Source of the DNA: Alphaproteobacteria bacterium
GTDB lineage: Bacteria > Pseudomonadota > Alphaproteobacteria > Micropepsales > Micropepsaceae
Direction: 5' to 3'
Assembly: GCA_025361185.1 (NCBI GenBank)
Contig: JANYAR010000048.1
Coordinates: 1 to 64,000, forward strand
DNA: 64,000 nucleotides
Below, one piece after another: positions 1,908 to 17,472 of the stretch. The notes beneath the pieces are model-generated. The model saw only the letters and a list, made by a program, of their open reading frames with translations. It searched no databases and had not been told where the DNA came from. The position numbers and the translations under genes were made by a program. The first letter of the stretch is position 1, and every line of letters starts with the position of its first letter.

Positions 1908-1946
1908 GCCGCTCAGAACCTATGGACCGTTCGCCTGCGGCGAACC
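1908..1946. repeat. Palindromic repeat unit A (intergenic)
   Basis: Contains CTATGGACC followed by the hairpin TTCGCC-TGC-GGCGAA and then CCGCTCC. Over about 33 nt it matches the unit ending near 8804 with one mismatch. It lies between the serine hydrolase and the MFS gene and belongs to the modular family described under findings. Confidence 0.7.
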
Positions 1947-2091
1947 GCTCCGCACGGCATTGAAATAAACAAGCCAAAACAACGCAATGTCCCGGCTCCC
2001 ACGGCCGGTCCTTATCGCTTGAGTGACGCGCGATAGGCTTTAAGCTGGTCCGTGCGTGGCAAACCGCTCACGTGGTCATGAGGGGGCTCGC

Positions 2092-8694: not shown

Positions 8695-8812
8695 CTCGCC
8701 CAAACCGTCCGCACGCTGTCGCTACGGACCGCTCGTCGCTCGAAAAGGTCCGCTGGACGTCCATACGCTGTCGCTATGGACCATTCGCCTGCGGCGAACC
8801 GCTCCTCTCAAT
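8695..8812. repeat. Palindromic repeat unit E (tandem double unit)
   Basis: Two tandem hairpins share the identical loop CGCTGTCGC: arms GTCCG/CGGAC (8707-8711 and 8725-8729) and GTCCATA/TATGGAC (8759-8765 and 8775-8781). A third hairpin TTCGCC-TGC-GGCGAA follows (8784-8798), then CCGCTCC. It lies between the convergent M20 and NDH-2 genes. Confidence 0.75.
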
Positions 8813-16338: not shown

Positions 16339-17472
16339 TTAGCGCAAAAGCGCGACGGCAAATCCTTCGACGGGCCGCTTGGCCTCATGGCGCGGCGCGG
16401 CGGCCAGAAGCCCGGCCACATGGAACCCGGCTTGTCCCGCCAACGCGCGCAAATAGGCCTCGCTGTGGCGCCAGCGGCGCTTGGGGCCGAGCTCAAACCC
16501 CTCACCTTCCGCTTTCTCGACCGTGAAAATAAAATAGCCGTCCGGCTCAAGACGGGCATGTGCGCCCTGAAAGACCATCTTCAGATCGCCCAGATAGACC
16601 AGTGTGTCGGCCGCCAAAATCAAATCATAATGCGCGCCCGGCGCCGACAGCGCGGTTTCCAGATCCGCGACTTGAAGATTTTCATAGATGCCGCGTGCCC
16701 GCGCCTTTTCGATCATCGCGGGCGACAGATCCACCCCGTCCAGCCGCGCCGCCAGAGGTTTGAACACCGCCCCGGCCAAACCGGTGCCGCACCCCAGATC
16801 CAAAATCGCCAACCCTTTTTTAATGGTCGCTCGCCCATACGCTGACGCTATGGGCTTCGCCGACGCTCCAAGGCCCCCCGGCATCACCATCGCGGCCAGA
16901 TCGAACAGAATCTGCGGCGCGGCATAGGCCAATTGCCCGATCATGCTTCTGTCATAGTCGGCCGAGAACTGGTCGAACAGATGACGCACATAGCCGGGAT
17001 CGCAGCGCTGAGCCGCCTTGATCGCCTGGGCGGCCGCGATCATATCCGCCGGCGGATTTTCCAGGTCTTTCAGATTTTCCAGCGCCATATCGGCCTCGCC
17101 CGCCTTGAGCCAGGCGGTTGCAATGCGTTCGCGCGCGCCCACCAGATTTGAGTCCAGCCGCAATGCCCGTTGAAATTCCGCAATGGCCGAGGGCAAGGCA
17201 TCCACCGCCAGCAACACTTCACCCAGCGCGAGCACCGCAACCGCGGCATCGGGATTGAGCGCCACCGCTTCGCGCGCCTCAGCCAGCGCGCCGCTGGTGT
17301 CGCCCGCCGCCAGCAGCGCCTTGATCAAGGTCAGCCGCGCCAGCAGTCCGCCGCGCCCCGCCGCAAGGCGCGCGCGCAACGCGTCCGCTGCCTCTCGCGC
17401 CTTGCCCTCGGCTATCAGCGCCTCGGCGGCTTCGATGGGATCGCCTTCAAGAATCATCATGAAAGAAGACAC
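16339..17472 (-). CDS. TPR-repeat class I SAM methyltransferase with embedded repeat
   Basis: 377 aa. The N-terminal half (about 10-135) is tetratricopeptide-like (A-x-x-L helices, ALNPDAAVAVLALGEVLL). The C-terminal half is a methyltransferase: ILDLGCGTGLAG (about 223-234), GVDLSPAMIEKAR, DLILAADTLVYLGDL. This layout matches predicted TPR-methyltransferases (COG4976 type), usually with unknown substrate. Between the FDQFSADYD segment and the SAM loop lies an insert of about 20 residues (199-218, with ASAKPIASAYGRAT) encoded by a copy of the palindromic intergenic repeat, in frame and without a stop. The MaoC gene lies immediately upstream; its stop is at 17474. Confidence 0.85.
   Translation of the reverse strand: MSSFMMILEGDPIEAAEALIAEGKAREAADALRARLAAGRGGLLARLTLIKALLAAGDTSGALAEAREAVALNPDAAVAVLALGEVLLAVDALPSAIAEFQRALRLDSNLVGARERIATAWLKAGEADMALENLKDLENPPADMIAAAQAIKAAQRCDPGYVRHLFDQFSADYDRSMIGQLAYAAPQILFDLAAMVMPGGLGASAKPIASAYGRATIKKGLAILDLGCGTGLAGAVFKPLAARLDGVDLSPAMIEKARARGIYENLQVADLETALSAPGAHYDLILAADTLVYLGDLKMVFQGAHARLEPDGYFIFTVEKAEGEGFELGPKRRWRHSEAYLRALAGQAGFHVAGLLAAAPRHEAKRPVEGFAVALLR
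16830..16870. repeat. Palindromic repeat unit F inside a coding sequence
   Basis: GCTCGCCCATACG...CGCTATGGGC then TTCGCC..ACGCTCC. The stem is GCCCATA (16833-16839) with TATGGGC (16849-16855) and loop CGCTGACGC. It matches unit E except one loop base and a compensatory T-A to C-G change in the stem. It is translated as part of the TPR-methyltransferase. Confidence 0.75.

What the first reader, a model, noticed from the sequence alone, without database searches (positions are those of the whole stretch)
16819..16878. Palindromic repeat translated inside a methyltransferase
A copy of the same intergenic repeat sits in frame in the TPR-methyltransferase, adding about 20 residues (around 199-218) just before the SAM-binding loop. 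The stem GCCCATA/TATGGGC differs from the intergenic GTCCATA/TATGGAC by a matched pair change, and the loop differs by one base. This resembles Rickettsia palindromic elements that create new peptide segments in proteins, and suggests the mobile repeat can tolerate or exploit coding insertion.
Basis: partly seen in the sequence, partly recalled or inferred. Interest (0 to 1): 0.7.

Follow-up and report, generated by a model that had tools for sequence, protein, structure and literature searches.

The report
Palindromic DNA repeat inserted inside proteins
A short palindromic DNA repeat that is scattered between genes in a group of alphaproteobacteria has also landed, in reading frame, inside a methyltransferase and other ordinary enzymes, adding 12 or 18 amino acids in loops, much like a phenomenon best known from Rickettsia.

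Summary
The methyltransferase ORF (16339-17472, -) has an 18-residue insert (about 200-217) just before the SAM-binding motif LDLGCGTG. Of 60 same-genus loci (itself included) 2 have this 54-nt long form, 1 (G084) a 36-nt short form at the same site, 56 neither, 1 unreadable. The insert is a copy of a dispersed repeat: body GGAGCGTYGGC...GAGCGACC and an A-rich tail; the long form holds a hairpin whose stem covaries. The short form occurs in 27, the long in 13 of 69 genus genomes. In-frame copies lie at 18 gene sites with Pfam-recognised hosts (M20 peptidase, RimP, HemN/W-type, CysQ-like, Rsm22, glycerol kinase, MutS and others); orthologues were compared genus-wide for five of them. Five of six genes with an internal long copy hold a short one at the same site in another species. 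AlphaFold shows a disordered loop. The window's intergenic repeat shares only the hairpin. It works like Rickettsia palindromic elements and intragenic REPs, but met no family definition that I could test. Probably neutral; the mover is unknown.

The parts
16339..17472 (-). TPR repeat + class I methyltransferase gene, 377 aa (GTG start as listed), host of the insert
   Evidence: ORF; Pfam Methyltransf_11/12/25 and TPR; orthologues
16816..16869 (-). long-form palindromic element, 54 nt, read as GASAKPIASAYGRATIKK
   Evidence: family profile; translation; gap in orthologues
16822..16875 (-). codons 200-217, the gap seen in orthologues; shifted by 6 nt from the element consensus because gap placement is ambiguous
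16833..16839 (-). one arm of the 7-bp stem (hairpin module)
16849..16855 (-). other arm of the 7-bp stem
16840..16848 (-). 9-nt loop GCGTCAGCG
16816..16824 (-). A-rich 3' tail of the element (ATTAAAAAA)
8759..8781 (.). intergenic copy of the hairpin module in another outer context
8707..8729 (.). degenerate intergenic copy of the hairpin module

Best explanation
The segment is a copy of a non-autonomous palindromic repeat of this genus that was inserted in frame into the methyltransferase gene and is kept as a harmless disordered surface loop. The repeat has a short form (about 36 nt: GAGCG, a short stem YGGC-GNRA-GCCR with mostly GNRA loops, GAGCGACC, A-rich tail) and a long form (about 54 nt) in which that small stem-loop is replaced by a 7-bp hairpin with loop GCGNCAGCG. 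Both consensus lengths are whole numbers of codons (12 and 18), and the two commonest sense frames give small, polar residues (GASARAGATNK, SVGESRSDQ), so a copy landing in a surface turn can survive. Shown: the insert, its family, its absence from most orthologues, in-frame copies in other genes, short and long forms at the same site. Inferred: translation in the cell; that a short copy came first and the hairpin was gained in place; that recombination between species takes part; that the mover is outside the element.
For: MTase site: 2 long, 1 short, 56 empty, 1 unreadable of 60 loci. Family: 33 long copies in 13 of 69 genus genomes (reversed-pattern control 0) and 180 short copies in 27 of 69 (sum of the per-genome counts; control 1). 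Element edges and tail from 33 long and 149 short unique copies; three long-form stem pairs change on both sides and are paired in 33 of 33 (25, 18 and 23 expected if independent). In-frame copies with Pfam-recognised hosts; 8 ORFs picked by the same filter, mostly antisense to other signal, had no Pfam match. No element at the site in 25 of 30 M20, 28 of 30 RimP, 28 of 29 covered HemW and 27 of 30 CysQ-like loci. Glycerol kinase and the glycosyltransferase-41 protein have 7 residues in excess of the best solved homologue at the repeat. AlphaFold: MTase residues 200-210 and 212-215 below pLDDT 50 in a model of mean 91.6; M20 residues 94-108 below 50 (mean 77).
Against: No transposase or target duplication was identified. 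The RAYT family (PF01797) has no match in this genome and in 11 of 13 long-form carriers. The DNA folding energy of the window copy is not unusual (z -1.21). Long copies are not nearest to others of the same genome more often than chance (5 of 33; 602 of 2000 permutations as high), so recent bursts are not shown. RimP and CysQ-like linkers vary in length without the element, and two M20 loci (L211, L212) have other longer loops, so these sites are indel-prone anyway. For 11 of the 18 gene sites no homologue comparison was made, and for MutS it was not clear-cut. The M20 model has four other poor stretches. No transcript or protein data.
Confidence: 0.85

Rival explanations
1. Native protein loop that by chance resembles the repeat.
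For: Loops before motif I vary among methyltransferases (general knowledge, recalled).
Against: The 45-nt body differs at 1 position from a copy outside recognised genes; 56 of 60 loci have no loop there; the same peptide is found in unrelated proteins.
Confidence: 0.02
2. One ancestral insertion per gene, inherited vertically, with many precise losses, explains same-site copies in distant species.
For: Insert edges agree to the codon in MTase of G000, G015 and G084 and in M20 of G000, G066, G086 and G014. Supports at some key nodes are low (0.40 for G015+G092, 0.87 for G000+G084).
Against: M20 carriers have empty nearest relatives (G084, G090, G070) and MTase of G015 has empty G092, G085, G036; these keep native-looking residues, so losses would have to be precise.
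Confidence: 0.25
3. Recombination between species carries insert-bearing or empty alleles around, making the patchy pattern.
For: M20: in windows over columns 240-600 G086 is slightly nearer to G014 (77-89%) than to its sister G070 (75-86%), while beyond column 660 it is nearer to G070 (85-96% against 74-88%).
Against: The difference near the site is only 2-5 points, and the first two of those windows include the insert itself, which G070 lacks. Gene trees without the insert broadly follow the five-gene tree. No clear switch in MTase.
Confidence: 0.35
4. Independent insertions at the same permissive or preferred site in different species.
For: RimP of G000 and G068, far apart in the tree, carry copies in the same linker and frame. 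A same-site case is reported for recB of two Xanthomonas species (PMC3733652, section 15 read).
Against: No fixed target word upstream of the element.
Confidence: 0.4
5. The insert is exploited: it adds a useful function such as regulation or binding.
For: It is present in three species whose MTases are 76-78% identical to this one.
Against: The peptide differs among the three, is predicted disordered, and recurs in unrelated proteins in two main frames.
Confidence: 0.07

Closest known systems
Rickettsia palindromic elements (RPE)
   Same: Palindromic dispersed repeats found between genes and in frame inside unrelated genes, adding a peptide segment (PMC10969869, passages; PMC3733652, passages)
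   Different: Given there as about 150 bp; here 36 or 54 nt in a GC-rich genus, in two size forms.
CGTC- and GTAG-tagged REPs, including intragenic ones (PMC3733652; passages and section 15 read)
   Same: 20-40 nt palindromes, CGTC group mainly in alphaproteobacteria and without dedicated transposase, some inside ORFs, one same-site case in recB
   Different: CGTC REPs have 8-9 bp stems almost always starting with A-T pairs, 4-5 nt loops and a CCA tail; the present stems are 4-5 or 7 bp. The hairpin module does sit in the loop of CGTC-like repeats elsewhere in this genome
Enterobacterial RU small mobile sequences within genes (PMC2759123; abstract and section list seen)
   Same: Small dispersed repeats with open frames that occur inside genes
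   Different: 103-168 bp units in enterobacteria
Caulobacter CIR elements (named in PMC10969869, passage seen)
   Same: Alphaproteobacterial dispersed repeat
   Different: Said there to be strictly intergenic

Membership tests
Rickettsia palindromic elements | In-frame copies in unrelated genes that lengthen the protein relative to orthologues | tested here: met
   (orthologues compared for five genes)
Rickettsia palindromic elements | Element length about 100-150 nt | tested here: not met
   36 and 54 nt; RPE length ~150 bp in PMC10969869, lower bound recalled
Rickettsia palindromic elements | Sequence similarity to an RPE family | not tested
   No RPE sequences at hand
CGTC-tagged REP | 8-9 bp stem almost invariably with A-T pairs in first and second position, loop 4-5 nt, CCA tail | tested here: not met
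   Definition from PMC3733652 passage; present stems 4-5 bp (short) or 7 bp with 9-nt loop (long)
CGTC-tagged REP | No dedicated transposase | tested here: inconclusive
   No RAYT match in this genome; other transposases not searched
GTAG-tagged REP with RAYT | RAYT (Y1_Tnp, PF01797) gene in the carrier genome | tested here: not met
   0 matches in G000 and G015; 2 of 13 long-form carriers (G014, G016) have one; several assemblies are incomplete
GTAG-tagged REP with RAYT | GTAG at the unpaired end of the palindrome | tested here: not met
   GTAG, where present, lies at the junction of stem and loop
MITE | Target site duplication and terminal inverted repeats | tested here: inconclusive
   Judged by eye on the filled and empty sites: no general duplication, ends not inverted repeats; one gene (iPGM, L396) shows a local repeat
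Known structured RNA (Rfam) | Match to a family | tested here: not met
   0 matches at E <= 1 over window 16500-17200

The most novel reading that the evidence does not exclude
The repeats are modular: one hairpin module (loop GCGNCAGCG) moves between different outer repeat bodies, including CGTC-like REPs and the GAGCG...GAGCGACC body, also while that body is part of a protein gene, so that protein loops lengthen or shorten in place by six codons. Together with an A-rich tail and the sense-strand bias of non-coding short copies between co-directional genes (16 sense, 1 antisense) this would point to an RNA-level step in its spread.
Probability: 0.15. Interest if true: 0.8.

Novelty: new variant of a known kind. 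Interest (0 to 1): 0.55.

Why it matters
In-frame palindromic repeats are best known from obligate intracellular Rickettsia. Here a genus with many sequenced relatives shows empty, short and long states at the same codon in several genes, a natural series for asking how such repeats move and how enzymes tolerate them. If the modular six-codon length change is real, it is a way for a DNA repeat to change protein loops stepwise. Topic-word searches of open-licence papers listed no paper that I recognised as describing this repeat; the repeat's letters cannot be searched there and subscription papers are mostly missing.

Tried and rejected
Chance resemblance was rejected. RAYT-driven mobility was tested and not supported. 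That long copies resemble others of the same genome looked likely from the MTase copies of G000 and G015 but failed a permutation test. Folding energy gave no support (the second sequence in that call had wrong coordinates and is not used). Rfam gave nothing. The sense bias inside genes (16 of 18 gene sites, my count; binomial 0.0007) was first read as selection for the peptide; it is weakened because non-coding short copies between co-directional genes are also mostly sense (16 to 1), although copies with a signal on the left only are even (12 to 12), long copies are 3 to 2, and 53 short copies could not be assigned. Reverse frames of the short form are open more often than sense frames.

Rows left out: the filter flagged 43 rows of 186; 29 of these I count as true host genes. 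Left out are 8 loci without Pfam match (L381, L385, L390, L391, L400, L407, L447, L452; L381 gave two rows), L410 (Pfam match far from the element) and L004, L090 and two rows of L378, which were not Pfam-tested. In one search the 24 of 149 short copies labelled CDS include L410 and two from the tandem array L438; 7 of 33 long copies are labelled CDS. 186 rows became 182 after removing duplicates. The RimP end copy of G013 (L127) is not among the 18 sites. IQ-TREE gave no tree, so trees are FastTree only. The Ogata 2002 paper is not held.

Full report
What was checked. The window lies on contig 47 of a 3.5-Mb assembly (G000, unnamed). The reported hairpin is at 16833-16855 inside a 377-aa ORF on the minus strand with TPR and class I methyltransferase domains. 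A hairpin pattern with up to three mismatches occurs three times in the window against a mean of 0.01 in shuffles.

The insert. tblastn of the protein against 30 same-genus loci, itself included, shows a gap of 17-18 residues before LDLGCGTG in 28 of them; only G015 shares the segment. In a second set of 30 loci, 28 could be read by motif: G084 carries a 12-residue version and 27 have none; G063, missed by the motif, has none in the alignment; in G001 the match breaks off before the site. Sum: 2 long, 1 short, 56 empty, 1 unreadable of 60. These are the best matches for which loci were given; some genus genomes had no such locus.

The family. The core CNTAGCGNCAGCGTANG occurs 45 times in G000, with 0 for the reversed control, and in 24 of 61 genomes searched, 23 of them of this genus. 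The 45 copies show one hairpin in several outer contexts. One context, GGAGCGTCGGCG...CGAGCGACC followed by A-rich sequence, is that of the methyltransferase; with up to three mismatches it has 33 copies in 13 of 69 genus genomes. An exact search of the public species genomes found 15 stretches, all with alphaproteobacterial or proteobacterial titles (records very near the window may be left out there). A shorter form without the hairpin, GAGCGTNGGCGNNAGCCNGAGCGAC with up to one mismatch, has 180 copies in 27 of 69 genomes (sum of the counts). From 149 unique short and 33 unique long copies the conserved body is followed by 8-9 A-rich positions (13-30% GC in the short, 6-21% in the long form, the last one higher), after which conservation stops; consensus lengths are about 36 and 54 nt. 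In the long form three stem pairs vary as TA/CG, CG/GC and GC/AT/GT/TA/CG with 33 of 33 paired at each; the search pattern itself favoured C and G at one of them. In the short form one stem pair varies as CG, TA, AT but is unpaired in 26 of 149. Tandem arrays have periods of 32, 33, 35 and 36 nt (positions), so a whole-codon length is not guaranteed outside genes.

Other proteins. Scoring coding signal on both sides found further in-frame copies, with hosts recognised by Pfam: M20 peptidase, RimP, a HemN/HemW-type radical SAM protein, an inositol-monophosphatase-family protein (CysQ-like is my narrower name), Rsm22, an FGGY kinase (glycerol kinase by its solved relatives), MutS, NAD-glutamate dehydrogenase, iPGM, EamA and MFS transporters, an FAD-binding monooxygenase-like protein, two YjeF/Nnr proteins, a metallo-beta-lactamase-fold protein, an alpha/beta hydrolase and a DUF4236 protein. 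With the methyltransferase that makes 18 gene sites: 7 in the GASARAGATNK-like frame, 8 in the SVGESRSDQ-like frame, 1 in the third sense frame, 2 reversed (my count). The long form is open in the third sense frame in 0 of 33 copies. Orthologues were compared genus-wide for five genes: besides the methyltransferase, the element is missing from 25 of 30 M20, 28 of 30 RimP, 28 of 29 covered HemW-type and 27 of 30 CysQ-like loci. For glycerol kinase a solved homologue shows 7 residues fewer at the repeat; for MutS the alignment is not clear-cut; for the rest no homologue was compared. The hairpin alone, without the outer body, sits in a glycosyltransferase-41 and an AMP-binding protein of G000; the former has 7 extra residues against a solved homologue.

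Same site, two sizes. MTase: long in G000 and G015, short in G084. M20: long in G000, short in G066, G080, G086 and G014. RimP: long in G000, short in G068. CysQ-like: long in G084, short in G077 and G066. Rsm22: long in G070, short in G080 and in L334 (G092 by the order of the list); no genus-wide survey was made for it. HemW-type: long in G015 only. On a five-gene FastTree of 35 genomes the carriers are scattered among empty relatives, and gene trees without the insert agree broadly. Some supports at key nodes are low (0.40, 0.87). M20 of G086 may be mosaic between G014-like and G070-like stretches, so recombination may take part; the signal near the site is small.

Structure. AlphaFold gives the methyltransferase a mean pLDDT of 91.6 with residues 200-210 and 212-215 below 50, between a helix (185-196) and a strand (221-226) that leads into motif I; a short helix drawn at 206-212 lies in the low-confidence part. 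In the M20 peptidase residues 94-108 are below 50 between strands 83-88 and 112-118; that model is weaker overall (mean 77, four other poor stretches).

Mechanism. Most likely a small non-autonomous repeat, copied by an unknown agent, survives inside genes when it falls in a surface turn and keeps the frame. The RAYT family has no match in this genome. Non-coding short copies between co-directional genes are sense in 16 and antisense in 1, which may hint at an RNA-level role; genes there were called by composition only, and this is unexplained.

Known relatives. In-frame palindromes of Rickettsia are described in PMC10969869 (passages), and intragenic GTAG and CGTC REPs in many bacteria, with a same-site case in Xanthomonas recB, in PMC3733652 (passages and section 15). 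The present family does not meet the stem definition of CGTC REPs or the size of RPEs. The phenomenon is therefore known; this family, its two codon-multiple forms and the repeated use of the same sites are what I did not find in print in the searches named under Why it matters.

Names.

Noticed in passing
L396 (G016:C19:54400-56200), minus strand: In the iPGM gene the element is followed by a perfect inverted repeat (16-nt arms, 3 nt between) of local coding sequence and a repeated AVHVMG segment, as if a fold-back copy arose with the insertion.
   Followed up: partly
L073, L081, L084, L100, L107, L108: The same hairpin sits in the loop of CGTC-like REPs (TGTCATTCCCGCG...CGGGAATCCA and variants) of this genome.
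   Followed up: partly
L438 (G014:C54): Several short elements in tandem, in frame, in a metallo-beta-lactamase-fold protein.
   Followed up: no
L127 (G013), about 1500: A long element forms most of the C-terminal end of RimP in G013, while G000 carries one in the RimP interdomain linker.
   Followed up: partly
L131 / L157 and G070:C24:135179-135424: Tandem arrays of the short element with a 33-nt period.
   Followed up: no
window 1920-1951 and 8774-8805: A further 32-nt repeat, 97% alike, with arms TTCGCC/GGCGAA; the second copy overlaps the end of the hairpin copy at 8759.
   Followed up: no
non-coding copies of both forms, e.g. L144, L148: A stop triplet lies within a few bases of the element's 5' end in 12 of 26 long and 35 of 125 short non-coding copies; chance level not computed.
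   Followed up: partly
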